From Charina bottae (lineage: Eukaryota > Chordata > Lepidosauria > Squamata > Charinaidae), in contig JALMGJ010000006.1 of NCBI GenBank assembly GCA_023362775.1, forward strand, positions 6,657,001 to 6,721,000: DNA of 64,000 bases, given 5' to 3'. Each line of letters opens with the position of its first letter. The first letter of the stretch is position 1. The notes under the pieces were generated by a model. That model saw only the letters and a program-made list of their open reading frames with translations. It did not search any database and was not told the DNA's origin. Positions 9,457-42,523 of the stretch are shown piece after piece. A program made the translations under genes and the position numbers.

Positions 9457-9459
9457 ATT

Positions 9460-11885: not shown

Positions 11886-12093
11886 AGTTGTAAGAACTCC
11901 GCAAGCTCTTCCCAGGTAGCGAGCGATGGCGGGCTGTCCTCGGCGGGTGGGGCTAATATTGTTGTGGTCGAGTCAGGGGGTGACACTTGGTGCATCCACA
12001 GATCTGAAAAAGGGACGAACACAGCGGCCCAGAACCCAAACGACTTTGTCGGTGTCATGTATGGCAGCGTAGCCCCGCCCCCAAGTAATCAAA

Positions 12094-14552: not shown

Positions 14553-14553
14553 G

Positions 14554-15057
14554 TCAATTGAAAATTAATTTCGCGTCGAACTGGCTCAGTAAGTCCCGTC
14601 CCCACAAATTAACATGAAGAGGAAGAACTATTGGTTTTATATGAGCGGTCACTGCGGATTCAGAAGAAGTAACCGAAAGCCAGTATTTGCTTACTCGTGC
14701 GTGTTGGACTCCACCCACTCCATGGACCGACAGCGTACTGTCCGTCTGCCAGTCAGAGGGCCATTCTGTCTCTCTTATGACCGACACGTCAGCTCCGGTA
14801 TCTAAAATACCAAAGAAGGAGCGGCCGTTGACTTGAAATGTCATGGAGGGGCGAGACTGTTGGATGTTTCGCTCCACTGATAAGATGTGCGGCGATTGGG
14901 GCACAGGAATACCCGTAGCCACCACCGTTCCCTCCGAGATCGTCATAGAGGAAGTATTTGGAATAAAGGCAAGCGCAACTGATGTAAAGTCAGCTGAATC
15001 TCTTAAAAATGGCACAGCCATCACGCCCTGTGTTATAAAATCACGGTAAGGAAACAC
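14554..15057 (-). pseudogene. pro: Retroviral protease region (pro)
   Basis: The 167-residue frame has the aspartic protease signature FFGILDTGADVSVIRETEWP (about residues 80-100). It also has the C-terminal GRDLLSQFDAKLIF, the G-R-D/N-x-L element. The amino-terminal 70 residues are not assigned. A dUTPase-derived segment would be expected there in betaretroviruses but I cannot show it. The frame is cut on its upstream side by the SINE insertion. Confidence 0.82.
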
Positions 15058-15392
15058 GGTAAGGGGCGTGGTGGCTCAGTGGGTAAGACGCCAGGCTTGT
15101 TGATTGGAAGATTGCAAGTTTGGAGGTTCGAATCCCTAGCCCTGCGTGCGGAGTGAGCTCCCGCACTAGCCCCAGCTCTTGCCAACCTAGCAATTCGAAA
15201 GCATGCAAATGCAAGTAGATGAATAGGTACCACTTCGGTGGGTAGGTAACAGCGTTCCACGCGTGTCATGCGGCCACATGACCGTGGAAGCGTCTTCGGA
15301 CAACGCTGGCTCTTCGGCTAACAAACGGAGATGAGCACCGGCCCCTAGAGTCGGACACGACTGCACAAATGTGCGGGGGGTACCTTTACCTT
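15058..15392 (+). mobile_element. tRNA-derived SINE, Sauria-like, inserted in provirus
   Basis: The head reads GGGGCGTGGTGGCTCAGTGG (A box) and GGTTCGAATCC at 15125-15135 (B box), so it carries an RNA polymerase III type internal promoter. The body includes GTAGATGAATAGGTACCAC and CCACATGACC. The tail ends GAGTCGGACACGACTG...TTTACCTTTA, where the GAGTCGGACACGACT stretch is shared with the BovB 3' end in this window. The target duplication TAAGGAAACAC is at 15047-15057 and 15393-15403. It is therefore younger than the provirus and was probably moved by BovB-type machinery. Confidence 0.88.
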
Positions 15393-15530
15393 TAAGGAAA
15401 CACTAGCAGTGGGGTATCGAATCCTGGTGGAAAAGGAAGCGCTGGCCGAATTGGTAAAAAATATGAAAGGCCAGGCAGACCGGTGACTATAGTTTCAGAG
15501 GCTACAAAAACAATGTGATGGATCTCAGCC

Positions 15531-16080
15531 TTAGGGACGGGGCTGGCTGACCGCCCCGCTATTAGTTTTCCGATGGCTGAGGCGTAGAAGGCATGGGGTT
15601 GGAGCGACACTGGTTTGCCCAATGAAAGCCTTTTTTGCAACGTGGGCAAACAGTTTTCGGCCTGGCGGCTGCACTTCCCTATTTATGGGCGCCACCACCA
15701 GGAGCACGGCATTGATTTTTAAAGTGGCCGGGCTTGCCGCAGTTAAAACAATTGCCAAATTTCGTTCTGGTTTGCGCACCGGGGTCCCCTGCCCTTTGCA
15801 ACGCCATGGCCAAGGTTTCCATATTAAACGCGTTAGTCCCCACAATTCGACAAGCCTGTATATAATCTGCTAATCCTGCATCAGGTTTGCTCATTAAGGG
15901 TTGGAGAACTCTTTTGCAATCTTCATTAGCATTTTCAAAAGCGAGTTTTTTAAGCAGTTCGCTCTGGGCTATTCCATTGGTGATTTCTCTAGATATTGCT
16001 TTTTGTAATTGGTCTACAAATTCCCCATATGGCTGGTTGGCTGCTTGAAAAATTTTAACAAATGAGCCCTTAGTTGCCAT
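15531..16080 (-). pseudogene. gag: Gag capsid C-terminus and nucleocapsid
   Basis: The frame has the capsid major homology-like region (FQAANQPYGEFVDQLQKAI) and a dimerisation domain. The first zinc knuckle is CFNCGKPGHFKNQC. A single in-frame stop at 15679-15681 follows, and the same frame then continues with the second zinc knuckle [14 protein letters not shown]. Two CCHC boxes are the norm for betaretroviruses. The stop would truncate Gag before the second box. Confidence 0.87.
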
Positions 16081-16095
16081 GTGGGCATCATCGAC

Positions 16096-16375
16096 TCAGG
16101 TTAACGCGGTTTGCACCGCGAGAGCAGAATGAGCGATATGGAGGAGATCCATGCCCTGTTGAATATTAAGCTGGCTAAAATTGCCGGTACCGGTCAATAG
16201 GTCGGCGGTAGGTTGGTTTTGACCCCGCCAGGCTAAGGCGATTTTTTTGACATTCCTTTTTCCATTCTGATTCCCAAACCACATATTGAGATGAAGTTAG
16301 AACCATATGGAATAGCCCTCTCCAGTCCTCTGGTAGCAAATGAAAGGTCGAAGCCATGTGACCTATCAGACCCAA
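16096..16375 (-). pseudogene. gag: Gag capsid N-terminal region, frameshifted
   Basis: Two overlapping frames give FHLLPEDWRGLFHMVLTSSQ (16375 downward) and, after a frameshift in a run of T near 16240, ALAWRGQNQPTADLLTGTG. The second frame continues to a stop at about 16096 just before the capsid C-terminal frame. It fits capsid of the same Gag. Confidence 0.75.
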
Positions 16376-17036
16376 GGTATAGTGGTAGAAATGCCATAGG
16401 TGGTGGTGGCTTGTTTAATTTCCTTGATGGTTTTTATGGGGATTGGTTCGTAGGTACGCTGACCTGTCGTAGGATCTATATGGACAGGAGCACAGAACGG
16501 ATAGTCCTCTGGATCAAGTTCCCCTTTTTTATAAGCCTCCGCCAATTCCCTGGAAAAGGCGCCAGCGGGGGAGCGAACTTCTTGTTCTCTTGGCGCCGTT
16601 GGATTTGGCACCATGTCCGCCTCGTAGACGGACAACGGACTCGTTACCTCCCCGTCCTGTCCCTGTTTTTTATTATTGTCGGGCTTCTCAGGCTCATAGG
16701 GAGGAGGAGGATCCGTCCTCGAGCTTTGTTGCAATGCATCCGCGTGAATTTCTAAACACTCAAATACAATTCGCCACGTGGACAAAATTTTTGGAGGAGC
16801 TCGAGGAGATTCATGAAAATATTTGCCTAATTTAATCCAAGTAGATAATTTAAGAGACCCAGCCTCTGGATAGACCGGGCAATTCTGATAGATGTATTTT
16901 AAAAGTTCAATTAAATCTTTTCTGGTGGGGAGAGGCAAATTATTCCCCTTATTTTTTAACACTAGAATTGCAGACTTGGTCAATTCCCTAAGTTCTGAGA
17001 GGTGCGCGACCTGAGGTTTAGAGAATTTTGCCCCCA
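16366..17036 (-). pseudogene. gag: Gag matrix and proline-rich region
   Basis: I take the start at MGAKFSKPQ (near 17036), because Gly-2 with a following Ser fits myristoylation. An upstream in-frame Met at 17148 would place 37 residues before it that overlap the leader. The matrix-like helical domain (STWIKLGKYFHESPRAPPKI) is followed by a PPPPYEPEKP segment, whose PPPY is a late-domain motif for ESCRT recruitment. The frame then ends where capsid should begin. Confidence 0.8.
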
Positions 17037-17167
17037 TACTCACGACAAGATTTGGGAGGGTGCTTCGTCGACTCCTGACGACCGGCCCTGAGTTGCAGTA
17101 GGCTCTTCCGCCGAGTGGGTATGAGGGTCCAAGTCCGGGGAGATCCAAGGGACGTATTCAGCAATGA

Positions 17168-17185
17168 ATCGCGTCGGGGTCACCA
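17168..17185 (-). promoter_or_regulatory. Primer binding site, tRNA-Trp type
   Basis: The minus strand reads TGGTGACCCCGACGCGAT, two bases downstream of the 5' LTR. It matches the complement of the vertebrate tRNA-Trp 3' end at 17 of 18 positions. tRNA-Trp priming is known from avian alpharetroviruses. Betaretroviruses usually use tRNA-Lys. Confidence 0.85.
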
Positions 17186-17187
17186 GT

Positions 17188-17708
17188 TGCGGCGTTTCGC
17201 TGCCGGCGGGCCTCTCATGGCTTCCTTGGATCTGGAGAAATGAGGACACCACGCGTGGTTTCCTCGGGATGAGGGCTCCGAATGCAGCTCGGGGAACCTC
17301 TTTTATTAATTCTTAGTAAGGTGTTCTCAACCATGACTACGTTTACAAGCATGTGATATACATTGTCCATACATAGCATAGGGAGAGGCGTGGCAGCTGG
17401 GGTGCGTACGTGCCGTTTGTCTCTTGATTGGTGATCACGGCGTGCCGTCTGCGTGCTTTTGTTTCTGCGCTCGTGCCGTGAGCGTGCTCGCGGCTGCTGT
17501 GCATGTGACTTCCGGACGTCGGCTGACCCTCCGTGCGCGTGTTGGATACAGCCTAGCCAGGCGCAATATCACACTACTTTGCACACCGCCCCTCTGCCCA
17601 TGTACGTGCTCCCGGATGTTTTCTCTGGGTTATTCCAATTTTGCATTATATCCGCCTGCTGCAGCTGCTAATGCAGCCTGGCAGGCTATATGTGCTAAAA
17701 TCCCAACA
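17188..17708 (-). repeat. 5' LTR of the betaretrovirus-like provirus
   Basis: It is 521 bp with TG...CA termini, and the inner edge is fixed by the primer site at 17185. The outer flank (CACGCC onward) does not match the flank at 9771. Confidence 0.93.
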
Positions 17709-20204: not shown

Positions 20205-20360
20205 CAAGAGATCTTGCTTTTTCCACAATGCTAAAATAAAATAAAATTTCCAAAGGCAAATTTACTGTGTAGACATTGACTCTCTTGTCTGTAGCCAATT
20301 CCAATGCCCTGGTTAAGGCGATTAACTCCGCCTTCTCAGTTTCAAGCTCCATGGAGATGT
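20205..20360 (-). pseudogene. pol: Gammaretrovirus-like RNase H fragment (copy B)
   Basis: It is the counterpart of 1-160. Here it connects directly to the RNase H end and integrase fragment at 19727-20122, showing that the copy A fragment is also part of a leftward gammaretroviral pol. Confidence 0.7.
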
Positions 20361-20461
20361 TGGTGAAATATTTTTACAGCTCTCAACATTATGCCTCACT
20401 GCTGGCCTGTGACCAATGAATGAAATAAATTCATTAGAATTAATCTCTTAATCAGATTAAG

Positions 20462-21172
20462 TAGGCTAACCATATGTCCTGTTTTGAACGGGACAGTCCC
20501 GTTTTTTAAACAATTCCCGACCGTCCCGTCGTCTTAATAAAAATGTCAATTTTGTCCCGTTTTTTAAAAAATTTGAAAGTTCCCGTGAACCTGTCAGGAT
20601 GGAGGCCGAGTCGGAAGAGGAAAAGCTGCTGACGACGAAGGCGTGAAATTCAAATCGGAGCCAGAGCCTACGATTGGGGAAAGTCGGGCCAGAACCTCCA
20701 CCGCCTATCAGCACGCGCGTTAGGCGAGCTGAGAGGCGGGCCGAACAATGGGAGGAGTGAAGGGTCCTCCCCGGCCCGCCCGCTTGCCCGCCTGCATGGC
20801 TTGCCTCACCTGCCCTGCCGGCCGGGCAGTGACCGCGGATGGACCGAGCGTGCTCTCCTCCTGGGGCCGTGGCCCTGGCTGAGGAGGGGCGAGCTCGTGC
20901 TCCCCCGGCACCCTTCTGCCCGCATTGGGTGACCCTCATACTCCCCACGCCCGCTGCAGTAGTGGAGGGCTGCGGGGCTGTGGGGCTGGAGGTGGTGAGG
21001 GGAACAATGAGAGCACCCACCCGCCCTGTTTGCCGGGGCGCCGCAGGGACCGCGCTGCCGGCGAGGCTTTAGACGGAGTGTGCGCACATGCATGCATGTG
21101 TGCCCACTTTGTCCGGCGAGCCATGGGTAGGTTAGGGTCCCGTTTTTGTCTCAAGGAAATATGGTCAGCCTA
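20462..21172. mobile_element. hAT-like MITE (copy B)
   Basis: It has the same termini as 261-996 and the same 8-bp AGATTAAG duplication at 20454-20461 and 21173-21180. The interior is about 25 bp shorter than in copy A because of small indels in the GC-rich core. Confidence 0.8.
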
Positions 21173-21180
21173 AGATTAAG

Positions 21181-22565
21181 GGAGGAGAAGGGATGAAGGT
21201 TTGAAGTCTTTAAGGAGGCTTTCCACATTGCAGTGATGTAAAGATAGCGAACTCCTGGGCATTTTGAAGAAGTGTGATTGTTGTATCTCTGGTAGCTTTC
21301 ATTTCCCCTAAGAAAAAAGACATGCGTGAGCAAAAGGTCCATTGCTTTGAAAAGCTTCTTGTTGAGCGCCAGTGGTAGACTCAAACTGAAGAGGCTGGCA
21401 CCTTTCCTTTAATCCCTCAATGGGGTCTCCAAAATAGCTGGTATATCAGAAGGAGTTGATTTTAGACCCCCTTCTAGCATGCAGCTACATGTTACTCCAA
21501 TCTCTACCCTGGTTCAGTGGCGCATTATGCCTATATAATTTAGGGGACCGCAAAATTTTGAAGCAAAAAAAAAAAGATGTAACAACAACAAAGGGTATCT
21601 TATAACAAAGCTGTTTCAGAGATATTTCCTTACCAGATTCGTCAACGCTGTCAACAATTACAGGGCTTCTAATGTACTAGAAAAGTTCTAAAGAGACATT
21701 CAGATATGTATCTGCCTTGAAAGAAGCCAATGTTGAACCCCCCCACCCATAGGCTCCTGTGGGGGTGTCACGGGTTCTTTTTATACCCAAGATTGTTTAT
21801 CCAGACTCAAATAAAAGTCCCCCAATAAAGCACTGTACATTTAAAGTTTTTAAGTCTCCCCTTATAAATTTAGGGGGTGTGTTTTACTTTAAGCAAATAT
21901 GTACAATATAAAAGTGTTCTATATAACTATGTGATTAGCTAATATGATCCTAGTTTATAACTAACCTAAATTACTAATGGACTTATACTATACAACTATT
22001 TCTATCCTTACCTAATACATATATAAACTAACTATTCTTATATTACTCCTGCTGCTACAAGGTTACGCGGTTGCTACTATGTCTAGTACACAGAGCTTCT
22101 TTAATTGGGCAGTTTGCATACACTTGTCCCTCTTCAGACATTTGCTGCAGGACTTTTATTCTGCGTGTTGTTTCTTCTGGACCTTCCAAGTCTCTGTGGG
22201 AAAATAAACACCTTTTTGCTTCTTTGGTTGCTTTATTTCCTTTCTGGCTGCCTGCTTCACAATCTCCAAACACACACCAGCCCTGCTCTTGTCCTGCTTT
22301 CTCTCACCATCTCCTCTCAGCTGTTCCACATGAAGGCTTTTATCAGCTGCTCCGCTGTTCCAACGCTGAGAGAAGGTTTGAAGTAGAGGGGAGGGAGGCA
22401 ATCACAGGTGCCTGTAATTTCCTTACAGCCTGCTCTCCCACGGGGGACCGCCAACTAAGGCCAGCCCAGCCCCACCAACGGATTGTGCCGGCTGGGAGAG
22501 CACGGTTGGCTTGCCTGCGGTCAAGGATCGGGTAGACTGTACCTCTGAGGGTCCTGAAAACCCAG
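21181..22565. other. Unassigned sequence (copy B)
   Basis: It is the counterpart of 1005-2368. No gene is recognised. Confidence 0.5.
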
Positions 22566-23051
22566 TCAACCAGTAGACTCTATATCAGTAGAGCCAGGAA
22601 CAGAGTCCGAAGCAAAGGCTGCCAGAGCCGATGGACAGGATGTATCTGAAGATGACAAAGGCTGAGATGCTGATGCTGGAGGGGCCCACCTGAGGAACTG
22701 GAGCTGTTTCTTTATCACCTCCGCAAAGTGTCCTGGGAAAAGGGGGACCAGCAGCTGAAGAAGCTCCTTCTTTAGCATCCCGACACTCCAGAGATGGTCT
22801 GCATGCCCCTGTAGAGCCTCGTTGTCCTCCGTAGACCAGGTCATCCATTTTGATGGAAGAGTTGTTACTTGCACGGGATTCAATTCCACAGAATTGAATT
22901 GTAGTGGAATTTGTGCGTGCTTAAGCTTCGCTGGGATGGAAACTGGATACCGCAGAAGCACAGGAATTGACTGGAACAGGAACAGTACTGAGAGCATTGA
23001 TTGTTTTATCTGGAGCATGAAAGGACTTGCGTGTTCATGGAGAGGGGCCAT
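22566..23051 (-). CDS. Unrecognised 161-aa open frame with Myb-like helix (copy B)
   Basis: It is the counterpart of 2369-2854, the same length and still open, with only a couple of residue changes (I to V and T to A). See copy A for the motif reasoning. Retention in both copies is weak evidence for function because the copies are young. Confidence 0.3.
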   Translation of the reverse strand: MAPLHEHASPFMLQIKQSMLSVLFLFQSIPVLLRYPVSIPAKLKHAQIPLQFNSVELNPVQVTTLPSKWMTWSTEDNEALQGHADHLWSVGMLKKELLQLLVPLFPGHFAEVIKKQLQFLRWAPPASASQPLSSSDTSCPSALAAFASDSVPGSTDIESTG

Positions 23052-23892
23052 TGAGATGAATGGTCATCAACCATTCCTGCATCAGCTTATGCAATAACCA
23101 CTGTTGCCATGGACAAAGTACGTATTTTGAGTGATACATTAGGGTTTCAAAGAACATTGAGAATTGCCTCTTCCCATACGAACTCATGCGCTGTTCGTGT
23201 TCCTGTACCCTGAGGTGCATCATCAGACATACTAGACTGAGTGCAAGATCCATTGGGCCCTGTTACAGCTCCTCTTTCAGAGGCAGTTAAGGTTTTCCTT
23301 TCCTGTTTGTTGCATTTAAAGACTGAGCCTTTTCTCGGCAACTTGAAAGCTGGCTGCTTTTAAATCAGGATGGCTAATCGTTCTAGATCAAGTTATATCG
23401 TAAGTGTATTTGTTATATACTGATTTGCTTGAACATCTATGAAAGAAAGGGGGAGGTATATGTGCTAGTGAAAAGGTGCTGAACGAGACAGCAATTCTGA
23501 CCACAGGAATAAACTTCACTGGACGCTCTGGAATTTACTTCTGAATAAATATGCACAGGATTACACCAGAAACCGAAATGCTAGCACTAAATAAATGTAT
23601 CACTGTGGCTATTTAAACAGATTCCATTGTGGGGATTTATATTCTCAACTTTTTTTTTTTGCTCATGCTCCCCTTCTGAGCCTCATTTACCTCTGTGACC
23701 CCCTTCATAGTCACTGTTAGCTGTAAAAAAAGTACTTTACCGTATTGTAACTGTCTTTATATTATAAAAAGTATTTGTAGTAGCTAACAAAAATGATCAA
23801 TCTATGCCGACATAATTGTGCCATAGGAAACAAAATTCTCAAAGACAAAATGTCTAGCAGCAGCATAAGCTCCCCCCCCCCCCGCCGAGATA
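23052..23892. other. Unassigned sequence (copy B)
   Basis: It is the counterpart of 2855-3700. The C-run near 23873-23883 differs in length from copy A. No gene is recognised. Confidence 0.5.
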
Positions 23893-24162
23893 CAACAACC
23901 AAAGAAAATTCACAACCATTAATCACCAGGTGTGACGACAGTGTCGACCACTTGTCCAAGTGGTGTCTGTAACCATTGCAGTAACCAAATTTAAAGGTTA
24001 GCACACACTCCTTACCCAATTCGGTAAATTAATACACATTGTCCTCAGGCATGTCTGGGTAAATCAATTCCATAGGCAAAACTGTGTAACCATATGTAAT
24101 CTGTGCCCCAGTCCTAGTAAAAGTTTCCAACAAATCATAAGGGCCAAAATTATAAATAGAAT
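23893..24162. repeat. Internal repeat R, copy 3
   Basis: It is the counterpart of 3701-3969 within copy B. Confidence 0.7.
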
Positions 24163-26172
24163 CCTCAAACAATAAAGCGTCTGAATCCTGACTGAAAAGG
24201 ATCCAGATAATCCACTTCATCCATGGCCCTCTGAAGCTGTTGCGCAACCACGTTCCCCCAAAAGAGGAGGTTAGATAACTGGACAAAAATTGTCCAGTAT
24301 GGTGTCCAGCGAAGGCTTCTTCAGGAGGGGAGAACCAAGACCTCTTTAATAGGTAAGGGAACAATCCCCTCACTCAAAAGAAAAATTAACCACTGCTAGA
24401 ACCCACTCTCATGACACTCCCCGGGCGACTTTCACAAATCAGGTGGGGCATGGGTCTAAAGAGCAGGTGGCTGAGCTCACAATCCTAAGGACCATGTCCA
24501 CTTGCTCAGGTCCAACAGATTCAAACCATTCTCAGATAATCAGGCAAGACTCCACTGTAGGCATCTCCTCTGGACCTGCAACAAGGCCGGTATCCAACTG
24601 TGAGCAAATCAGAGCAATTTTGTCCGACAGATGGTGAGCATATTCCTCCGCACGCCCCTCCAAAATGTTCCCCGAGCCCCCTTTACCCAAGAGGGCTCAT
24701 GTCACCTGAAACAGGGCTGCAGGGGAGCTATAGTATCTGTGGACGCAATAAGGGTGGGGAAGTATTGATGCTTCACTGCCCTTACCTCCACAAGGTAGGC
24801 CTTAATAGCAGCTCTAACCCGTGTCCGATCGAGTTTGTCCTTTGTTGAACTCCAGCAACACTCTAGACATCTTTTCTCATTTCATCTTCCTCAGCTCCTC
24901 CATGTGTGTGTTTGTGTCAGAAGCACCAAAGCGCTTCTGTAGTGAAAGGATTTGCCGGTGACATCACCGTTGCCCGGGGGAAGCCCAAGGAGGCTCCTTT
25001 CATGTCCCTGTGATTTTTCCCACCGGAGTGGTACCTAATTTATCTAATCACATTTGCATGCTTTTGAACTGTTAGGTTGGAAGGAGCTGGGACTGATTTT
25101 TAATAATTGCCGGTAGCTCACTCCAGCACGCGGCTCACACTCTTTGGTTTCAAACACCTTAATGGCTTCTGACTCAGCATCTTAACCTCTGAGCCACTGC
25201 GCTCCTCCATGAACCATAGGGAGTGACAGGATCCCCGAGAGAGGAGAGATCCCATTGGTCCAATCCAATCCAATCCAAAGCCTCAGCCACCTCCTTATTC
25301 CAAGTGGCGACCAAGGCTTTGGATGGACCGTGCAACAGACCAACAGGAACAACCCCCTAATGGGTCCAGCCTCCCTGCAGTGGATAGTGGCACTAGAGAA
25401 TCCCATGGAAACGCCCTGACAAAGGGGACACCAAAAGCTCCCCCAGTTTCAGATCACATAGCCACTACTCTGACAGGAACACACCAGATCTGGTGTGACC
25501 ACTGTCCCATGTTGGGCTCTTAATGACCTGGGACAGGCCCATTGCCATCATGGTGGCCCTGCGCTTCTGAGCCACCTCAGGCCTCACCTCCAGAAAAGGC
25601 AGGTTGAAGTCCCCCAAGACTATAAGTCTGGGGAACTCCACTACCAGCCCAGAAATGGAGTCAAGGAGCTCAGGTGGGGAGGTTGCTATACAGCAGGGAG
25701 GCTGATACAGCACCAACAATTCCAAGTGATCCCTAGGGCCCAACTTAATGAACAGGGTCTCACATCCGATGACCTGTGGTACAGTGCCTCTGAAAGCCTT
25801 AAGGGATTCCCGGAATGCAATCGCCCCACCCCTGCCCCAGAGTCTCGGCTGATGCCACACCCAGAACCCCGCTGAGCATATTTCCGAAAGGGCTACCCCC
25901 CCCCCCACTTCCCGGACCCAGCCAGGTCCCAGTGATACATGCCAGGTCGGCCGTCTCATCCTGATTAAATCGCTAATGAGGGAGATCTTATTACAGACTA
26001 ACCTGGCATTTGGTAGCAGCAGCTGGAGGGCAGGGCAACTGAAGGTCTGCTCACGGTGCCAGGGTAGAGGCCAAAGAACTGGAACGCGAAACCAGTATAA
26101 GACAACTGTTCCGCACTCCACAAGAGCGGCCGGCTCCCTGTCCCCCACCATTCCTCCCCATGCCCATGTCAT
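24163..26172 (-). mobile_element. CR1/L2-like LINE fragment (copy B)
   Basis: The endonuclease frame is better preserved here than in copy A: a 235-residue frame at 25465-26172 runs without a stop from NARLVCNKISLISDLI to GLSQVIKSPTWDSGHT. The early RT blocks lie at about 24163-24400 as in copy A, and the SINE is nested at 25022-25207. Confidence 0.78.
25022..25207 (-). mobile_element. tRNA-headed SINE fragment (copy B)
   Basis: It is the counterpart of 4826-5005, with the same head and truncation. Confidence 0.7.
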
Positions 26173-26684
26173 GAACGAGTCAAGTCAAAATAGAAGCAAA
26201 AGGTTTTTATTGAAGCGTTTGCAAAGGCTGGTGGACTCAACAGTGCCAAACAAAGCGCACCAGGGAAGAGCCACACCCAGCAACAATTAGAGCTCATCTT
26301 TTATAGCCCTTTGCCCGGACGCTTTAGCCCTCCTCCTTTTACCCATAGGCTGGGTAGTCAGGAGTGAACAGCCTATACTGTCCGCCTCAATTGTCCCGCC
26401 TCTGTTTACATCTCCCACTCCCCACTTCTTACCTCCCCTTCCCCTTTATTTATTTCCTTGTAAGGAAGGTGTCCTACTTTAAGCAATGCTCATTAGCCTC
26501 ACCTTTGACCGCAAAGTTTCCTATAGCATGTGGGTTACGTTCAGCTTGCTAAAAATATATTCTCATTTCCTACAGGTAGTTATGTCAGAAATTTTGTTAA
26601 CTAATGCAGGAAAGGTCCAACGTAGGTTTATGGGTTAAGTTTATTAATTCTTTGTTAATAATAACTAATTTCATATTTCTCTCA
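26167..26684 (-). repeat. Gammaretrovirus-like LTR, 518 bp (copy B)
   Basis: It is the counterpart of 5962-6479, identical in length and with a few substitutions. Confidence 0.7.
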
Positions 26685-27861
26685 CCCATCACCACCATAA
26701 TGCCATGGCCCACCTCCACCCCCCAATGGCAGCCCCATCCCGAAAACCAAGACAAGGGACAAAAACCTCCCAACCAACCATCACTGGGAGGGGAAGCCGG
26801 GCACCCCAAGGCACTATAGTTTCACCAGCTCTCAGTGTCATCAGGGTACATAGCCACCACCTCCCCACACACTACCATACAATCATGCATATTGTAACCC
26901 ATTCATACATACAAACACAGGTGGCTTCCCCTGCCACTCCCACCAGCTGGTAGAGGGCTCCCCTCATTGACCCACTCTCAGTTCCTCCTCTGACTCTCAT
27001 CCAGAAGGAGGAAACTTTCCATTCACTATAGCGAACAAATGGAGCACATTATTCCTTCCTTCTCAGGGCTACCTGAGGAGGAAGGGGGTCTACAGTAGCC
27101 TGCCACTCTATTATAGCCCCCACCCCTGCCTGGCCATCGCTCAAACCTCCAAGCCCCAACGTCTAACAAGAAGAGTAGATGTGCAGGAAGGAACCAGGTG
27201 ATGACAAAGGAGTCCAGCAGCAGCAAAAAGGGTCCCAACAGCAGCATCCACCAGAAGCTGCTTCCCCAGCCCGCAGCAGCAGCCTGCTCCTCACCCACTC
27301 TCTGCATCCAGCAGCAGCCTGTTCCTCTGGAAAAACAGATCAGGAGCCAGCGCCTGGTCCAAAAAGCCCGCTGTCAAGTCCACAACAAGGATGGCACAGC
27401 CAGCCAAAATCACAAACATGGCCACAAAAACGTTGCAAAATGCCGTAAAGCGACCAGCACAGTAAAACAATAAACACGGCCGTCCTCCAGCATGCTGCGC
27501 TCCAGTCCAGTCTGGCCTGCTCCAACCTCCTCCTCTGTTTGTGCCCGATCCTGATGGGTCATTTTGGTGGTCTTGGTTCCTGGTTTATGATTGGTCATTT
27601 TTGGAGTGCTTATTCCTGTTTGGTTCTTTGTTCATAATTGGGTCCTTGTCTGGGCAAATTTCTGATTTGCCCATTTTGGAGAGCTGATTCCTGGTTGGTC
27701 CTGCTTTTGGGCAGTGTTGTGCTGGTTGTTTTCTCGATTGAAGCTGTGGCAGACTTTGCTGTTAGTTGGCTGTGGACCCTGTGATCCTGGTGTAATTTAA
27801 CTTTTTTTAATCTATACACTACTAAAACGCTCGTGGCTGTTTGATACTTGTAACCTTTAAC
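26685..27861. other. Unassigned sequence with CAG-rich tract (copy B)
   Basis: It is the counterpart of 6480-7656. No supportable gene. Confidence 0.45.
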
Positions 27862-28000
27862 TGGGTGAAACGGGTCGCTCAATCCTGGCTTCTTTCGGCC
27901 ATTGGCTGGCTTACTCTGAAGCTCACAACCTATCAGAATCGCCTAATCAGCATATAATTAAGCCTGCCCCTGTTTACCCAACCCCTTACCCTATTCCAGG
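27862..28000 (-). repeat. Fragment of the gammaretrovirus-like LTR (copy B)
   Basis: It is the counterpart of 7657-7795. Confidence 0.6.
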
Positions 28001-28097
28001 TTGTCATGTTCATTATTGACATTGTACATATCTGATGTAAAACGAGTAAACATACATTGTGTTGGCTCAAAACTATTACAGCAGATATTGTTTCTGG

Positions 28098-28369
28098 ACA
28101 TATATGCATGAATGACTAATACTGACTCTAGCAGTTCTTGTTACATTCTGTTTCTCAGTTTTGTTTTAATGAGGTTCATCTGAGAGAAAGTTCTTTCAAC
28201 GGCAGCATTGGTGAAAGGCAATGCCAGGAATAATAATGCAAAATAACCTATTTCATATAAGTCATGTTCCCCAATTGTTCAGCATTCAAATCATCTGTGT
28301 TTGACCATGACATTAAATGAAGTTTATTCCACTGTTGTTCTAGCAATCCAAGGTTTTTCATTAGTAATC
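28098..28369 (-). pseudogene. hAT transposase C-terminal fragment (copy B)
   Basis: It is the counterpart of 7895-8165, with the same NAAVERTFSQ motif on the minus strand. Confidence 0.72.
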
Positions 28370-28513
28370 TAATGGAATTTAGTAATCCAAGGTCCATTAG
28401 TCACCTGGGGCAGGCCAATCTAATAGGCCCAGCCTCCCAGCGGAAGGGGTGGCACCAGAGAATTGGAGGCTCACCGGTGTCAGATATGAGTCAAGTCAAA
28501 AGGCAAATGGAAA

Positions 28514-28951
28514 CCGTTTATGATGTTCCTCAGATTTTTCTGGTTCCTCCTCTGTTTCCAATTTATAAATCATTTCTCTTACTGCCTTCTTGTTTTTCCC
28601 TTTTGTTTCAGGCCATTGGTCGGGAGTCCATAAGAGGGCATAATCTAATTAATTTTTTAAAGATTTACACGACTTCTGTTTCACATAGTCGTATAAAGCA
28701 TGACACCTAAAGTGATCATTTGACCCATCCCTTGGCCAAGAGGCATTATCATCCTTCCACCACACATAACAACACAGATTTATCATATCTTCCTTACTTA
28801 AGTCTAACTTGTCCACCAGAGGTTTGTACGGTTGTTTGTCCCAATTATCTAACATCTTACCTATAGGACTGCCCTTATCTATTCTCAACGTTGGATTTTT
28901 CCATATTTTCTTAGTGCACTTTTCCTTCCGTACACTCGAGCCTCCTCCCAT
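28514..28951 (-). pseudogene. gag: Gammaretrovirus-like gag, matrix region (copy B)
   Basis: It is the counterpart of 8310-8747. The 100-residue frame 28649-28951 is identical in sequence as far as I can compare, with the same in-frame stop followed by continued coding potential. Confidence 0.7.
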
Positions 28952-29339
28952 GGTTGGTTTAACTATCCTGCCTATTCCCTGTTGACCGTATTTCCAGGGC
29001 CTCCCTTCTTAGAACCAGAACCTCCAGCAGTCGCTGGACTTGTTCACCGGACAAATTTAAGGTCCTAATTCCCAATAACCTCCCAGCCCGCACTGGCTAC
29101 TTTTAAAGGTTATTCTTCTACTGAGACCCATTTATCACACAACTACTACTTCATTCGCACCCGGCCGGTCCTCTCGTGAGGATTCGGAACTGCGAGTTTG
29201 AACTCCACACTCAATTCGCCTTGCCAGCCCTAATGGCCCTTGGGGCGTCTCAAATCACACCGGTCTCAAGAATCTTACAGGCCTACCCAACCAGAACCCT
29301 ACCACCCAGGCAAGGCATTCCATGCACTTTGCGCAACCC

Positions 29340-29348
29340 TCTTACCTG
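29340..29348 (-). promoter_or_regulatory. Splice-donor-like site, downstream leader unit (copy B)
   Basis: CAGGTAAGA on the minus strand, counterpart of 9136-9144. Confidence 0.45.
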
Positions 29349-29464
29349 GGTTCGTGCACGAAGTTGCCCGGTAATTTGTCTCTGGGGGGGATTTTCAGAC
29401 TCGAGTTTTCTCTGCCAACAGGTCTAGGGCCCAGGCAAGGAATTCCATGAGCTTTGTGCAACCC

Positions 29465-29473
29465 TCTTACCTG
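29465..29473 (-). promoter_or_regulatory. Splice-donor-like site, upstream leader unit (copy B)
   Basis: CAGGTAAGA on the minus strand, counterpart of 9261-9269. Confidence 0.45.
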
Positions 29474-29642
29474 GGTTCCTACAGCCTTTTGTTTCTCCTT
29501 TTGACCTCTCTTTTTGTTGTCTGGTTCCTTCACGGGCTCCGGGGTCTAAGACTCAGGAACCCCACACTGGACTACTGAACTCAGTAGGGCATGCCTCCCA
29601 TAGTGAGGTCAGTGCCCAGACTTACCGGACACAGTTAAAGGG

Positions 29643-29660
29643 ATCCCGGACGAGCCCCCA
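29643..29660 (-). promoter_or_regulatory. Primer binding site, tRNA-Pro type (copy B)
   Basis: TGGGGGCTCGTCCGGGAT on the minus strand, three bases from the LTR terminus at 29664. Confidence 0.9.
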
Positions 29661-29663
29661 ATT

Positions 29664-30190
29664 TGTCAGATGTGAGTCAAGTCAAAAGGCAAATGGAAAC
29701 AAAAGGTTTTTATTTTTGAAGCTGTTTGCAAAGAGCTGGTGGACTCCACCGTGCTAGAAAACAAGCCTCACCAGGGTAGAGCCACACCCAGCACAGGTTT
29801 TCACACTTATTTATACAGTCCTTACCCGTCGCTCAATCCTGGCTTCTTTCGGCCATTGGCTGGCTTACTCTGAAGCTCACAACCTATCAGAATCGCCTAA
29901 TCAGCATATAATTAAGCCCACCCGTTTACCCAACCCTTACCCTATTTGAAAAGACCTCTACTCCTATTTACTGTTTCCCTTATAAGGGAAGGCTTCCCAT
30001 TTGAAACATTTGCTGTTTGTCTGAACTCCCTAATTGTGGATACATAGTCTCATATTCCCAACTGTCATCTCTTTTTCTGCAGGTGGTTTTGATAGAAGCC
30101 TTAGTGAGCTAGCTTAGGAAAGTCTCAAAAGTTCAAGCTGTTTTAATTATTAATTCTTTGTTAATAATAACAGATCCCTCATTTCTCTCA
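29664..30190 (-). repeat. 5' LTR of the gammaretrovirus-like ERV, complete (527 bp)
   Basis: On the minus strand it starts TGAGAGAAATG and ends TGACA. It carries TATAAATAAG near 29800 and an AATAAAAA poly(A)-type signal near 29705. It is the intact counterpart of the truncated LTR at 9460-9771. Confidence 0.87.
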
Positions 30191-30483
30191 CCGGGGAATG
30201 ATCTGACCATGGCAGGGGACAAACCAATATCTCCCCCAAATCCATAACACTCTGCCATTGTTCTGACAGAAAAACCAGGTCAGGTGTATTACCACTATTA
30301 TGTGTCGGGCCCTGGATGACTAGGGACAGGCCCATGGCTGCTATGGTGGCCGTGAACTCCCGAGCTATCTCTGACCCTGCAGCCAGAGAAGACAAAGCCC
30401 CCCAATACCGTAAGCGTGGGGAACTCCACCGCCGGTCCAGCCACGGAGTCAAGAAGCTCAGGAAGAGAGGTTGCTACGCAGCA
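30191..30483 (-). mobile_element. CR1/L2-like LINE endonuclease fragment
   Basis: The minus strand reads CCVATSLPELLDS, then MGLSLVIQGPTHNSGNTPDL and VCPLPWSDH: the end of an apurinic-type endonuclease with its Ser-Asp-His signature. It is the outer half of the LINE copy interrupted by the ERV at 28478-30190. Its upstream side joins the virus-like relic at about 30484. Confidence 0.75.
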
Positions 30484-31013
30484 GAGTTACATTGCCTCTT
30501 ACAAAAACCATCACCTTTATAAACAACTGAAAATGGACCATCACCCCTAAGCAAATAATTAACTAATCATCTTGGAAACAACCCCAATTATTCAAAAGTG
30601 TCCCGGGCTCACCACTAGTTTTCTGATAACCAGCAACACCGCAACCATAAGGTGAAACTATACAATAGTTCTTCCTAAAAAGAGTAGTAATGGTCAAGAA
30701 ATGTTGAAACACCATACCTCTTCCAATACTCATGCACCAAAACCTGTGTAAATTCATTTTCATTAGCATCAAATGTCTCAGCATCAGTTATACCATTAAC
30801 AGCAACAGAAGGAACTTTAGAAAAAGCAGATGTGACTCTACCAATGAAATCAGTTTCAACCATATAAACATCAGTAATGATGTTTTCTGCATCACTCGTA
30901 GCAACCAATTGCGTCAAAAATCTGAAAACACTACAAAACAGCACAAGCACCAACACTCCAAGCTGAAATTCCCTGACCTACTTTAGTAACATCAAAATCA
31001 AATTTAGGTTATT
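30484..31013 (-). pseudogene. Endogenous viral element: RdRp of a positive-strand RNA virus (hepe-like)
   Basis: On the minus strand the ordered RNA polymerase signatures are visible in three frames. GQGISAWS (30955-30978) is the block ahead of motif A. DANENEFTQ (30744-30770) is motif A-like. TSGEPGTLLNN (30587-30619) is motif B with S-G-x3-T-x3-N. VVYKGDG (about 30507-30527) is motif C with G-D-G in place of G-D-D. Gaps are roughly 60, 40 and 20 residues. The S-G-E-P-x-T form of motif B points to the hepelivirus part of the alphavirus-like supergroup. At least two frameshifts and several stops make it non-coding. Codons are strikingly T-ending. No retroviral features adjoin it, so capture by a LINE is likely. 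The family level is inference. Confidence 0.75.
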
Positions 31014-31080
31014 TATTTATTATTTATATTTATATCACCGCCCATCTCCCCCAAAACGGGGACTCTAACAATATCTTAAA
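31014..31080. repeat. Interspersed repeat fragment with CCGCCCATCTC motif
   Basis: A (TTTA)n-rich lead is followed by CCGCCCATCTCCCCC and GGGGACTCT. The same motif pair occurs at 33596-33665 and, diverged, at 46300-46345, so it is an interspersed repeat, probably the 3' end of a LINE or SINE family. Confidence 0.55.
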
Positions 31081-31159: not shown

Positions 31160-32128
31160 GAGGTCTGTCTGTCTATCCATTCAGTCGTGTCTGACTCTCG
31201 GTCACTTTGTGGAATGATGCTTTCCATGCCTTTCTATCTCTTACAGCTTCCTTTGTTGTTGTTGTTGTTCAGTCGTTTAGTCGTGTCCGACTCTTCATGA
31301 CCTCATGGACCATAGCACGCCAGGCCTTCCTGTCCTCCACTGTCTCGGAGTTTACTCAAATTCATGTTCATTACATCGGTGATGCTATCTAACCATCTCA
31401 TCCTCTGCCGTCCCCTTCTCCTTTTGCCTTCAGTCTTTCCCAGCATCAGGGTCTTTTCCAGTGAGTCCTCTCTTCGCATTAGGTGGCCAAAGTATTTGAG
31501 TTTCAGCTTCAGCATCTGTCCTTCCAATGAGCAGTCAGGGTTGATTTCCTTTAGGATTGACTGGTTTGACCTCCTTGCAGTCCAAGGGACTCTCAAGAGT
31601 CTTCTCCAGCACCACAGCTCGAAAGCATCAATTCTTCGGTGCTCAGCCTTCCTTATGGTCCAACTCTCACAGCCATACATTACTACTGGGAAAACCATAG
31701 CTTTAACTATACGGATCTTTGTCGGCAAGGTGATGTCTCTGCTTTTTAATATGCTGTCTAGGTTTGCCATAGCTTTCCTCCCAAGGAGCAAGCGTCTTTT
31801 AATTTCATGGCTGCAGTCACCGTCTGCGGTGATCTTGGAGCCCAAGAAAATAAAATCTGTCACTGTTTCCATTTCTTCCCCTTCTATTTGCCAGGAAGTG
31901 ATGGGACCAGATGCCATGATCTGGGTTTTTTTAATGTTGAGTTTCAAGCCAGCTTTTGCACTCTCCTCTTTCACCCTCATCAAGAGGCTCTTTAGTTCCT
32001 CTTCACTTTCTGTCGTTAGGGTGGTATCGTCTGCATATCTGAGGTTGTTGATATTTCTCCCGGCAGTCTTAACTCCGGCTTGTGATTCATCCAGCCCGGC
32101 ATTTCTCATGATGTACTCTGCATATAAG
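31160..32128 (-). mobile_element. BovB (RTE) LINE, 5'-truncated
   Basis: The minus strand encodes a 268-residue frame (31303-32109) with [13 protein letters not shown] (RT active site YADD), [40 protein letters not shown] and [20 protein letters not shown]. The frame then runs into the BovB 3' end with the GTCGGACACGACT tail and a (GTT)n repeat at about 31251-31262. A second tail-like stretch at 31170-31235 suggests an older BovB or SINE end beside it. The 5' break is at about 32128, within NLYAEYIMR. It is about 3% to 10% different from the copy at 39310 by impression only. Confidence 0.9.
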
Positions 32129-32337
32129 TTAGCTCAAGAAGGGTGTGTGTGTGGTAAATTTAATCTAACTAATTGTTGCCTCCAGACAGACGACAATGGG
32201 AGAGCTATCGAAGAGATAACAGAACGAATGCGAAAATTAGCTCATGTGCCAGTACAGACCTGGAAGGGTATGGGAGACTTAGGGATCAAGAATTGGTTCG
32301 GGGGCATGTTTAATAATTGGAAAAGGGACCTGGTGTA
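32129..32337 (+). pseudogene. env: Retroviral env TM fragment
   Basis: The plus strand reads [20 protein letters not shown] followed by [20 protein letters not shown] and a stop (TAA). The Cys cluster with N-L-T-N-C-C followed by a heptad-repeat helix and HVPVQ is the ectodomain of a TM subunit after the immunosuppressive segment. Between the first Cys and the CC pair I count seven residues, one more than CX6CC. It is broken on the left by the BovB truncation point and on the right by an LTR, so no anchor remains. Confidence 0.65.
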
Positions 32338-33322: not shown

Positions 33323-34896
33323 ATTTCTCTTTTGTAATATATTTTATTATTTAAAAAATTAAAAAAGAAAAAATTAACATACAAAACATATACTACAAAC
33401 TGACATACAATTACATTTATAGATATAAATAGAAAAAGAAGAGAGTAAGGAAAAACAAAATTTTGATAGATTTAAAAAGACTTCCTGCTACCCATCCAAA
33501 GAATCAAGATACTTATCTAAATTATCTTTTCTAAATTGTTATCAAATTATATATCTGCTATTTCTATTAACATTTTATATTATATAATTAATTTATTTTA
33601 TTTATTATTTATTATTTCAATTTATTCCCCGCCCATCTCCCTTGCAAGGGACTCTGGGCGGGTTACAACAATTGAAAGTTTAAAAATACAAAAACAGTAT
33701 CTAAAATACATCGAATAATAATAACAATAAATTACATAAAATCCAAGAAGGGGTATTTTGTGTTCTAATATAATCGAAAAAAGGTTTCCAAGTCTGTTTA
33801 TATTCATCCATATTTTTCCCATGTATCTGGTCAGTATGTTTTGCCATTTGTGTCAACTCCATTAGTTTAATAATCCATTCTTCTATCGTCGGCGTGGAGT
33901 CTTCTTTCCAGTGACATGTGTATACCGTTCTTGCTGCAGTTGTCAGGTATAATAAAAGTCTTTTGTATTTATTTTCTAAATCTTCATCCAAATGCCCCAG
34001 TAAGTAGAACTTGTTGGGTAATAAATTTAAGAGAAGACAAAAGGGAATATCAACTTTATGTTTATATAGTTCAAAATATACAAAAAAGAAAAAGCATAAA
34101 ATATATCTACAACAGACAACAATATAAATATAATATACCAAGACAGCAAGGAGCCAGGCAGAAAAGCCAAAAAGAAAAAGAGGCAGCGTATAGAGCAAAC
34201 AAGGATACTTCTCTTATACATTATCCACCACCTGATTTAGATTACAACTCAAACAAGAGTAATCCCTGTTAGGGCTACAGATCTTGAATATATCCAACAG
34301 AAATCAGATTTTTTTATAATACTTGCTTCCATCATTTTACAAATACAATTGTGAATTTTATCCCAATGTTTTTTACCTTTTTTACACAACCACCATATAT
34401 GGTAGAAGGTACCTGTCTCAGTTTTGCATTTCCAACATATCGTTGGGATATTCCGGTTCTTTTTAAACAGCTTTTCAGGTGTCATGTACCATCTGTACAT
34501 CATTTTGTAATAATTTTCTTTCAAGTTATAACTCAACATATATCAAGTTCTTTATCCACATATTTTCCCACATCTCATATCTAATATCATGTCCGAGGTT
34601 CTCTTCCCATTTTACCATGCAATTTTTAATTTTTATGTCCAAGGTTTTGATTTCCAATAATTTTTATACATTTTGGAAATTAAGTGATCATTTTCTGAGC
34701 ATAATATCTCATCCCAATTAACTGTTTGTTTTGTAAATTTAAATATTTTTTGTCTATATTAAATTGTTCTTTCAATTGTAAATATGTAAACCAGTGACAT
34801 AAAAATCCTTCTGTTTCCGATTCCTCTCTTGTTTTCAATCTATAATTACTTCCTTCAAATTGTATTAAATTAGTATACTTTAACCATTTTTCATTT
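33323..34896 (-). mobile_element. Host L1 (L1-H), 3' segment
   Basis: The 3' end is at about 33323-33370 (A-rich). ORF2 C-terminal sequence is recognisable in several frames: LLLYLTTAARTVYTCHWKED, PTIEEWIIKLMELTQMAKHT, MYRWYMTPEKLFKKN with the CWKC...FYHIWW zinc-type region, and NEKWLKYTNLIQFEGSNY. The frames are broken. A repeat insert sits at about 33590-33720. It is interrupted at 34897 by an LTR. Confidence 0.88.
33590..33720. repeat. Interspersed repeat with CCGCCCATCTC motif in L1-H
   Basis: TTATTTATT-rich sequence is followed by CCGCCCATCTCCCTTGCAAG and GGACTCTGGGCGGG. It is the same family as 31014-31080 and is inserted in the L1 3' region. Confidence 0.55.
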
Positions 34897-39309: not shown

Positions 39310-42300
39310 TCTCCAGCAAAGGAGTTCGTTACCTTGTCGTGGTGCTGGAGCTTGAGCACCTCAATGAAACCATGAGCTAAACCGTGAAGGGACACCCAAG
39401 ACGGGAAGGTCATGGCAGAGAGGTCAGACTAAATACGATCCCTGGGGAAGGTAATGGCAACCCACCCCAGTATTCTTGCCGTGAAAACTAAATGGATCAG
39501 TACAACCAGAGATATGTTGGTATACCATCGGAAGATGGGACTCCCAGGTCAGAAGATGGTCAAAATGCTACTGGGGAGGAACAGAGGATAAGTTCAACTA
39601 GCCCCAGATGTGATGACGCAGCTAGCTCAAAGCCAAAAGGACGGCTAGCAGCCGACGGTGCTGGTGGTGAACGACGAATCCGATGTTCTAAAGATCAACA
39701 CACCATAGGAACCTGGAATGTAAGATCTATGAGCCAGGGCAAATTGGATGTGGTTATTGGTGAGATGTCAAGATTAAATATAGACATTTTAGGTGTCAGT
39801 GAACTGAAATGGACTGGGATGGGCCACTTCACATCAGATGACCACCAGATCTACTACTGTGGACAAGAGGACCACAGAAGAAATGGAGTAGCCTTCATAA
39901 TTAATAATAAAGTGGCTAAAGCAGTGCTTGGATACAATCCAAAAAACGATAGAATGATCTCAATTCGAATTCAGGGTAAGCCATTTAACATCACAGTGAT
40001 CCAAATATACGCCCCAACCACAGATGCTGAAGAAACAGAAGTAGATCAGTTCTATGAGGATCTGCAGCACCTACTGGATAATACACCAAAAAGAGATGTT
40101 ATTTTCATTACAGGAGACTGGAATGCTAAGGTGGGTAGTCAAACGACACCTGGAATTACAGGCAAGCATGGCCTGGGAGAACAAAATGAAGCAGGACATA
40201 GGCTGATAGAATTTTGCCAAGACAACTCACTGTGCATAACAAACACTCTCTTCCAACAACCTAAAAGACGACTTTATACATGGACTTCACCAGATGGTCG
40301 ACACCGAAATCAAATTGACTACATCCTTTGTAGCCAAAGGTGGCGGACATCTATACAGTCGGTAAAAACAAGACCTGGAGCTGACTGTAGTTCAGATCAC
40401 GAACTTCTTATTGCAAAATTTAGAATCAGACTAAAGAGAATAGGGAAGACCCACAGATCAGTTAGATATGAGCTCACTAATATTCCTAAGGAATATGCAG
40501 TGGAGGTGAAGAATAGATTTAAGGGACTAGATTTAGTAGATAGGGTCCCGGAAGAACTATGGACAGAAGTTCGCAACATTGTTCAGGAGGCGGCAACAAA
40601 AAACGTCCCAAAGAAAAAGAAAACCAAGAAGGCAAGATGGCTGTCTGCTGAGACACTGGAAGTAGCCCAAGAAAGAAGGAAAGCAAAAGGCAACAGTGAT
40701 AGGGGGAGATATGCCCAATTAAATGCAAAATTCCAGAGGTTAGCCAGAAGAGATAAGGAATTGTTTTTAAACAAGCAATGTGCGGAAGTGGAAGAAGACA
40801 ATAGAATAGGAAGGACAAGAGACTTCCAGAAAATTAGAAACATTGGAGGTAAATTCCAGGCAAAAATGGGTATGATCAAAAACAAAGATGGTAAGGACCT
40901 AACAGAAGCAGAAGAGATCAAGAAAAGGTGGCAAGAATATACGGAAGATCTGTATAGGAAGGATAATAATATTGGAGATAGCTTTGACGGTGTGGTCAGT
41001 GAGTTAGAGCCAGACATCCTGAAGAGTGAGGTTGAATGGGCCTTAAGAAGCATTGCTAATAACAAGGCAGCAGGAGACGACGGTATCCCAGCTGAACTGT
41101 TTAAAATCTTGCAAGATGATGCTGTCAAGGTGATGCATGCCATATGCCAGCAAATTTGGAAAACACAAGAATGGCCATCAGATTGGAAAAAATCAACTTA
41201 TATCCCCATACCAAAAAAGGGAAGCACTAAAGAATGTTCAAACTATCGAACAGTGGCACTTATTTCACATGCCAGTAAGGTAATGCTCAAGATCTTGCAA
41301 GGTAGACTCCAGCAATTCATGGAGCGAGAATTGCCAGATGTACAAGCTGGGTTTAGAAAAGGCAGAGGAACTAGAGACCAAATTGCCAATATCTGCTGGA
41401 TAATGGAGAAAGCCAGGGAGTTTCAGAAAAACATCTATTTCTGTTTTATTGACTATTCTAAAGCCTTTGACTGTGTGGATCATAACAAATTGTGGCAAGT
41501 TCTTGGTGGTAAGGGGATACCAAGTCATCTTGTCTGCCTCCTGAGGAATCTGTATAACGACCAAGTAGCAATGGTAAGAACAGACCACGGAACAACAGAC
41601 TGGTTTAAGATTGGGAAAGGAGTACGGCAGGGTTGTATACTCTCATCCTACCTATTCAACCTGTACGCAGAACACATCATGCGACGTGCTGGGCTTGAGG
41701 AATCCAAGGCTGGAGTTAAAATCGCTGGAAGAAACATTAACAATCTCAGATATGCAGATGATACCACTTTGATGGCTGAAAGCGAGGAGGAGTTGAGGAG
41801 CCTTATGACGAAGGTGAAAGAAGAAAGTGCAAAAGCTGGGTTGCAGTTAAACCTCAAAAAAACCAAGATTATGGCAACCAGCTTGATTGAGAACTGGCAA
41901 ATAGAGGGAGAAAAAGTGGAAGCAGTGACAGACTTTGTATTTCTAGGCGCAAAGATTACTGCAGATGCTGACTGCAGCCAGGAAATCAGAAGACGTCTAC
42001 TTCTTGGGAGGAGAGCAATGGCATATCTTGATAAAATAGTTAAGAGCAGAGACATCACACTGACAACAAAGGTCCGCTTAGTTAAAGCAATGGTATTCCC
42101 AGTAGTAACCTATGGCTGCGAGAGCTGGACCATAAGGAAGGCTGAGCGAAGGAAGATAGATGCTTTTGAACTGTGGTGTTGGAGGAAAATTCTGAGTGCC
42201 TTGGACTGCAAGAAGATCAAACCAGTCCATACTCCAGGAAATGAAGCCAGAGTGCTCACTTGAAGGAATGATATTAAAAGCAAAACTGAAGTACTTTAGC

Positions 42301-42523
42301 CACATAATGAGAAGACAGGATACCCTGGAGAAGATGCTGATGCTAGGGAGAGAGGAAGGCAAAAGGAAGAGGGGCCGACCAAGGGCAAGATGGATGGACG
42401 ATATTCTGGAGGTGACAGACTCAACCATGGGGGAGCTGGGGATGGTGAAGGCCGACAGGAAGCTCTGGCGTGGGCTGGTCCATGAAGTCATGAAGAGTCG
42501 GAAGCGACTGAACGAATAAACAA
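39310..42523 (+). mobile_element. BovB (RTE) LINE, near full length
   Basis: It is 3214 bp, flanked by the 10-bp duplication ATGGATTGTT (39300-39309 and 42524-42533). The 5' region has the conserved BovB sequence GGCAACCCACCCCAGTATTC. The 3' end is GAGTCGGAAGCGACTGAACG followed by AATAAACAA. One long frame with endonuclease and RT is interrupted once. Confidence 0.95.
39492..42519 (+). pseudogene. BovB endonuclease-reverse transcriptase, single frameshift
   Basis: The frame is open for 923 codons (39492-42263). The endonuclease covers roughly residues 70-315: IGTWNVRSMSQGKLDVVIGE at the start, GDWNAKVGSQ with a catalytic Asp, and SSDHELLIAKFRI at the end. The RT covers about residues 480-800: YIPIPKKGSTKECSNYR, IYFCFIDYSKAFDCVDHNKL, GVRQGCILSSYLFNLYAE and the active site [11 protein letters not shown] frameshift at about 42190 moves the reading to the frame 42196-42519 ([20 protein letters not shown] to a stop at 42519), completing the normal C-terminus. 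It encodes the enzyme for target-primed reverse transcription. With one repairable lesion it is a recent insertion. Confidence 0.95.

What the first reader, a model, noticed from the sequence alone, without database searches (positions are those of the whole stretch)
30484..31013. Relic of a positive-strand RNA virus polymerase (hepe-like) in a reptile genome
Seen: on the minus strand, four RNA-polymerase blocks occur in the right order: GQGISAWS, DANENEFTQ, TSGEPGTLLNN and VVYKGDG, separated by about 62, 41 and 22 residues and spread over three frames. Known: the S-G-x3-T-x3-N motif B followed by G-D-D is diagnostic of viral RNA-dependent RNA polymerases, and the S-G-E-P form is typical of hepelivirus relatives in the alphavirus-like supergroup. 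Inferred: an ancient infection was copied into DNA by a LINE. Non-retroviral positive-strand RNA virus insertions are rare in vertebrates. The frameshifts, the T-ending codon bias and a G-D-G in place of G-D-D show it is an old, dead copy.
Basis: partly seen in the sequence, partly recalled or inferred. Interest (0 to 1): 0.9.

Follow-up and report, generated by a model that had tools for sequence, protein, structure and literature searches.

The report
Dead RNA-virus polymerase fragment in genome
A 520-base broken piece of an RNA virus's copying enzyme, resembling that of hepatitis E virus and its kin, lies between transposons of what looks like a reptile genome; such virus fossils are rare in vertebrates, but similar ones from lizards and a snake were reported in 2024.

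Summary
[quoted passage not shown] Scored against hepatitis E virus (HEV) motifs taken from print, at HEV spacing, they reach 121; the best of 150 whole-window shuffles reaches 97 and the best of 300 permuted-peptide controls 100. Spacings are 59.3/55.3/32.7 codons against 55/56/32 in HEV. T-ending codons mark the same frames (p 1.6e-12), so this was coding sequence, now with at least three frame changes. No Pfam, PHROGs, PDB or protein-database search of the pieces found a relative: the case rests on motifs, spacing and codon phase. A LINE-type tail and a truncated LINE fragment flank it, so it reads as integrated. Best reading: an endogenous viral element from a Hepelivirales-like virus, probably copied in by a LINE. 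The family is open: benyvirus-like RdRp elements of Podarcis, Gekko and Python are published (PMC11521997), and an exogenous skink hepevirus exists (PMC11170836). Species, age and orthology were not testable. New member of a known kind.

The parts
30934..31008 (-). Piece 1 of the viral polymerase relic: GQGISAWS block, like HEV motif II (SAWS); ends at a stop codon
   Evidence: motif II score 31 at 30966
30678..30869 (-). Piece 2: motif A, TDAETFDANENEFTQ, D-x4-D kept
   Evidence: Motif IV score 24 at 30788; T in third position of 61% of codons
30566..30691 (-). Piece 3: motif B, KTSGEPGTLLNN
   Evidence: Motif V score 46 at 30622; BLASTP 10 of 14 identical to the printed HEV peptide, E 6e-6 for that single comparison
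30477..30566 (-). Piece 4: motif C, VVYKGDG in place of KGDD; its last bases are already LINE-like
   Evidence: Motif VI score 20 at 30524; no BLASTP alignment to the HEV peptide
31001..31050 (-). LINE-type 3' tail directly upstream of the viral piece
   Evidence: 83% identical to 33590-33641; the LINE class is my recall
30214..30484 (-). Fragment of a LINE endonuclease region directly downstream of the viral piece, same orientation
   Evidence: 71-72% identical to 5221-5494 and 25423-25696; Exo_endo_phos_2 only at E 0.15, below its cut-off
30068..30192 (-). Another repeat downstream of the LINE fragment
   Evidence: Aligns with 6481-6356 on the minus strand
31265..32130 (-). 3' part of an RTE-type (BovB-like, recalled name) LINE upstream
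   Evidence: 75% identical to 41658-42523 inverted; RVT_1 E 8.2e-10 on 31303-32133

Best explanation
It is an endogenous viral element: about 520 bases from the polymerase gene (a block before motif A, then motifs A, B and C) of a positive-strand RNA virus of the order Hepelivirales or close to it, in sense on the minus strand, now a pseudogene. Steps: a virus infected germ-line cells (inferred); a LINE reverse transcriptase copied a piece of viral RNA into DNA, probably by jumping to it from a LINE RNA, because the viral piece sits at the 5' edge of a truncated LINE fragment in the same orientation, has no poly(A) of its own and abuts the A+T-rich tail of another LINE (anatomy shown, mechanism inferred); it then lost its reading frame at three or more places (shown). 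It most likely has no function today (inferred).
For: Four HEV motif blocks in order and at HEV spacing: 121 against at most 97 in 150 shuffles and at most 100 in 300 permuted-peptide sets; with +/-1 codon of slack still 113. T in the third position in 101 of 161 codons against 45 of 161 at each other position. Motif B 10 of 14 identical to HEV. LINE-like sequence on both sides, the downstream match beginning at 30484. Single copy in the window. Published precedent of RdRp elements of this order in lizards and a snake.
Against: No profile or database relative for any piece: Pfam, PHROGs, PDB, protein database, IMG/VR. HEV motif III has no good counterpart. Motif C is GDG and its piece does not align to the HEV peptide by BLASTP. 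The residue after the motif B asparagine is not S/T. No target-site duplication was recognised at the junctions; a 12-base direct repeat lies inside both flanking LINE stretches, 31044-31055 and 30229-30240, and I take it as chance.
Confidence: 0.85

Rival explanations
1. Family question: the source was a benyvirus-like animal virus, so this is one of, or a sibling of, the benyvirus-like RdRp elements already reported in vertebrates.
For: PMC11521997 reports 19 such RdRp elements, hosts including Podarcis, Gekko and Python (passages). Benyviridae is in Hepelivirales.
Against: No benyvirus sequence was available for comparison; the only viral papers found with the letters SGEPGT are on HEV (2 of 9 listed).
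Confidence: 0.5
2. Family question: the source was a true hepevirus of a reptile.
For: Motif B and the spacing are very close to HEV; an exogenous Rainbow skink hepevirus and a red-eared slider hepevirus are reported (PMC11170836, passages).
Against: No hepevirus element is mentioned in the passages seen of two vertebrate-wide surveys: the letters hepe occur 0 times in the main texts held of PMC11521997 and PMC11089739. Motif III does not fit.
Confidence: 0.2
3. Assembly or library artefact: a stray viral sequence joined to host DNA, or frame changes that are sequencing errors.
For: No reads could be examined; motifs and codon bias are well kept although frame changes are dense.
Against: The piece is short, internal to a gene, and bounded on both sides by host repeats in the same orientation; a genomic DNA library should hold no RNA-virus RNA (general knowledge).
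Confidence: 0.06
4. A decayed retroelement or host gene that imitates RdRp motifs.
For: Retroelements fill the window, and reverse transcriptases share the palm fold (general knowledge). RdRP_1 scored weakly, E 0.19 and below its cut-off, on the RTE LINE at 31303-32133, so such profiles can cross-react.
Against: RVT_1 is found on neighbouring LINE and LTR frames but on none of the pieces; the stretch has no second copy in the window; motif B is of the RdRp type.
Confidence: 0.04
5. Chance resemblance.
For: Motif B alone is matched by 1 of 150 shuffles, and nine IMG/VR stretches match the motif B pattern, 0 of 9 with a GDD-like triplet at the right distance.
Against: The chain of four blocks is beyond all shuffles and permuted sets; the codon phase follows the same frames.
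Confidence: 0.02

Closest known systems
Benyvirus-like RdRp endogenous elements of vertebrates (Barreat and Katzourakis 2024, PMC11521997)
   Same: RdRp fragments of a positive-strand virus family of the order Hepelivirales in vertebrate genomes, including lizards and a snake
Hepatitis E virus RdRp (Hepeviridae), motifs as printed in PMC9582770 and PMC2780410
   Same: SAWS block, D-x4-D motif A, K-x-SGEPGTLL-x-N motif B and KGD motif C in the same order and nearly the same spacing
   Different: GDG instead of GDD, no good motif III, frame changes; an endogenous fragment, not a virus
Rainbow skink hepevirus (PMC11170836)
   Same: A hepevirus reported from a squamate
   Different: Exogenous transcript; sequence not available for comparison
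Flavivirid endogenous elements of vertebrates (PMC11089739; hepacivirus element in PMC11521997)
   Same: Rare positive-strand RNA virus fossils in vertebrate genomes
   Different: A different virus family

Membership tests
Viral RdRp, alphavirus-like supergroup / Hepelivirales | Motifs A, B, C in order at polymerase spacing | tested here: met
   59.3/55.3/32.7 codons against 55/56/32 in HEV; controls
Viral RdRp, alphavirus-like supergroup / Hepelivirales | Motif A D-x4-D | tested here: met
   TDAETFDANENE at 30788
Viral RdRp, alphavirus-like supergroup / Hepelivirales | Motif B [S/T]Gx3Tx3N[S/T] | tested here: inconclusive
   SGEPGTLLNN meets [S/T]Gx3Tx3N; the S/T after the N is not met (W)
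Viral RdRp, alphavirus-like supergroup / Hepelivirales | Motif C GDD | tested here: not met
   GDG; a dead copy may have lost it, and it does say that this copy would not be an active polymerase
Viral RdRp, alphavirus-like supergroup / Hepelivirales | Match to the RdRP_2 profile (PF00978) | tested here: not met
   No match of any separate piece; pieces are 25-100 residues, so the test is weak; joined reading was not run
Hepeviridae | Groups with hepeviruses in an RdRp tree | not testable with these tools
   No hepelivirus RdRp set was found in the collections
Benyviridae-like vertebrate elements | Groups with benyviruses, or is one of the published loci | not testable with these tools
Endogenous viral element | Viral sequence contiguous with host DNA on both sides | tested here: met
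   LINE-like sequence adjoining both ends; reads not checked
Endogenous viral element | Same insertion in related species | not testable with these tools
LINE or LTR reverse transcriptase | Reverse transcriptase profile on the pieces | tested here: not met
   RVT_1 absent from the pieces, present on neighbours

The most novel reading that the evidence does not exclude
The first vertebrate genomic fossil of a true hepevirus (Hepeviridae), caught as a chimera in which a LINE reverse transcriptase jumped from its own RNA to the viral genome; orthologous copies would give the family a minimum age in reptiles.
Probability: 0.15. Interest if true: 0.75.

Novelty: new member of a known kind. Interest (0 to 1): 0.45.

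Why it matters
Positive-strand RNA viruses rarely leave fossils in vertebrate genomes: one 2024 survey found only flavivirid ones (PMC11089739, passages) and another added benyvirus-like and hepacivirus ones (PMC11521997, passages). A further locus with recognisable motifs and codon usage would help to place and date the animal lineages of Hepelivirales, the order of hepatitis E virus. The LINE-virus-LINE arrangement also offers a concrete junction for studying how RNA viruses become host DNA.

Tried and rejected
Separate pieces against Pfam, PHROGs (three pieces) and PDB sequences: nothing related to a viral polymerase. Weak rows were WNK kinases, Cj0248, HtrA, a plasma-membrane ATPase, phytase, notch, Pom152 and DUF7888, all taken as chance. 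Protein database, 3 of 3 searches: no candidate for motif B with candidate lengths of about 425-1353 and 696-2216 residues; for motif A 6 candidates, none at E 10 or better. IMG/VR, 5 of 8 scans: a 17-residue chance match (L001), no relative, one pattern match on the opposite strand of another gene (L002), no stretch for the alignment, and 9 stretches for a looser motif B pattern, of which 0 of 9 have a GDD-like triplet at the right distance. So these collections seem to hold no hepelivirus RdRp with this motif, and their silence says little. Rfam and tRNA scans of the window: 0 and 0. That the sequence after 29996 continues the sequence after the endogenous retrovirus: rejected (score 18; 30 shuffles mean 19.1, max 26). 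Structure prediction was not run: single short pieces without relatives would give no usable model.

Papers: 10 of 10 searches, some of them capped lists (16 of 17, 25 of 94). Of the papers that I opened or saw listed, PMC11521997 is the only one I saw reporting elements of this order in vertebrates. 12 papers were opened; I saw passages of each, plus the outline and the data-availability section of PMC11521997; none was read whole.

Full report
What is there. Minus strand, about 31005 to 30485. Read from stop to stop, four pieces carry RdRp-like blocks: 31008-30934 (GQGISAWS), 30869-30678 (TDAETFDANENEFTQ), 30691-30566 (KTSGEPGTLLNN) and 30566-30477 (VVYKGDG). They occupy three frames, so the stretch has at least three frame changes.

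Chance. To avoid judging by eye I took HEV RdRp motif letters from PMC9582770 (passages with table 2) and PMC2780410 (one passage), scored them without gaps (BLOSUM62, best sub-stretch) at every position of both strands, and chained them at HEV distances +/-12 codons. Four blocks: 121 at this locus, next best places 80-81, 150 dinucleotide-preserving shuffles at most 97. Three blocks (IV, V, VI): 90 against at most 73. Five blocks, with HEV motif III: 134 against at most 115, but motif III added 13 to the score and 14.5 to the shuffle mean, so it has no good counterpart here. V and VI: 66 against at most 57. Motif V (B) alone: 46, reached by 1 of 150 shuffles. Controls: 0 of 300 residue-permuted peptide sets reach 121 (max 100; their best place fell at this locus in 8 of 300), reversed peptides 87, true order best of 24 with the next at 104, and 113 with only +/-1 codon of slack. 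A Gumbel fit gives about 1.7e-6 per window; that is extrapolation.

Codon phase. In the four pieces T stands in the third position in 101 of 161 codons and in 45 of 161 at each of the others (chi-square p 1.6e-12); the pieces overlap by 14 bases and 1 base, and they were chosen by motif and open frame, which favours the test. A sliding T-phase that knows nothing of motifs changes frame in the windows around 30940-30870, 30760-30690 and 30610-30540 and fades beyond about 31000 and 30480. G+C is 0.363 with 11.9% C, against 0.55 in the LINE fragment that follows.

Surroundings. In the direction of the viral piece: the 3' part of an RTE-type LINE, 32130-31265 (RVT_1 8.2e-10; 75% like 41658-42523); a LINE-type tail ending at about 31001 and 83% like 33590-33641; the viral piece; from 30484 a LINE endonuclease fragment, 71-72% like two other copies in the window; then a repeat shared with 6481-6356. 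These run the same way. There is no poly(A) at the viral 3' edge. No target-site duplication was recognised; a 12-base direct repeat at 31044-31055 and 30229-30240 lies inside both flanking LINE stretches and I take it as chance. I infer a LINE reverse transcriptase that jumped from LINE RNA to viral RNA; order and orientation suggest it and do not prove it. The names BovB and RTE, and the squamate host, are judgements from recall; PMC9007160 (passages) says BovB is inherited vertically in squamates but also occurs in ruminants, frogs and others, so the host is not proven.

What the searches did not find. No relative of any piece in Pfam, PHROGs, PDB, the protein database or IMG/VR. In the protein database a protein of the tried lengths with SGEPGTLL would share four five-letter words with the query, and no candidate appeared, so it seems to hold none. 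Motif B aligns with the printed HEV peptide (10 of 14 identical, E 6e-6 for that one comparison), the motif C piece does not. The lack of a Pfam hit for short diverged pieces is the main weakness of the case.

Known relatives. Hepelivirales contains Hepeviridae, Benyviridae, Matonaviridae, Alphatetraviridae and Mycoalphaviridae. PMC11521997 (abstract, passages, outline, data section) reports 19 benyvirus-like RdRp elements, hosts including Podarcis, Gekko and Python. PMC11089739 (passages) found only flavivirid positive-strand elements. PMC11170836 (passages) reports an exogenous skink hepevirus. The kind is known; whether this very locus is listed I could not see.

Verdict. Observation confirmed and sharpened; interpretation right in kind, open as to family; mechanism inferred; age and host unproven. 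New member of a known kind.

Noticed in passing
1-9771 and 20205-29996: A duplication of about 9.8 kb at 97.6% identity, offset by about 20.2 kb. The first copy stops at 9771, where a retroviral LTR begins; the second stops at 29996, and the sequences beyond the two ends do not match.
   Followed up: partly
9772-17708: An endogenous retrovirus on the minus strand with LTR-like ends 9772-10295 and 17188-17708 (96.4% alike) and protease, integrase and envelope domains. No matching target-site repeat is evident by eye at its two edges.
   Followed up: partly
60609-63998: A 1130-residue open frame running off the window that looks like a Gypsy-type pol (not domain-searched); stretches at 49267-50291 and 50582-51895 match it inverted at 67%, and the frame 50371-51819 there has RVT_1 and RNase H domains.
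   Followed up: no
39492-42263: A 923-residue open frame of an RTE-type LINE, long enough to look fairly young (not domain-searched).
   Followed up: no
31303-32133: The RTE-type LINE frame gives a weak RdRP_1 match (E 0.19, below cut-off) beside its RVT_1 match, a reminder that viral polymerase profiles can touch reverse transcriptases.
   Followed up: no
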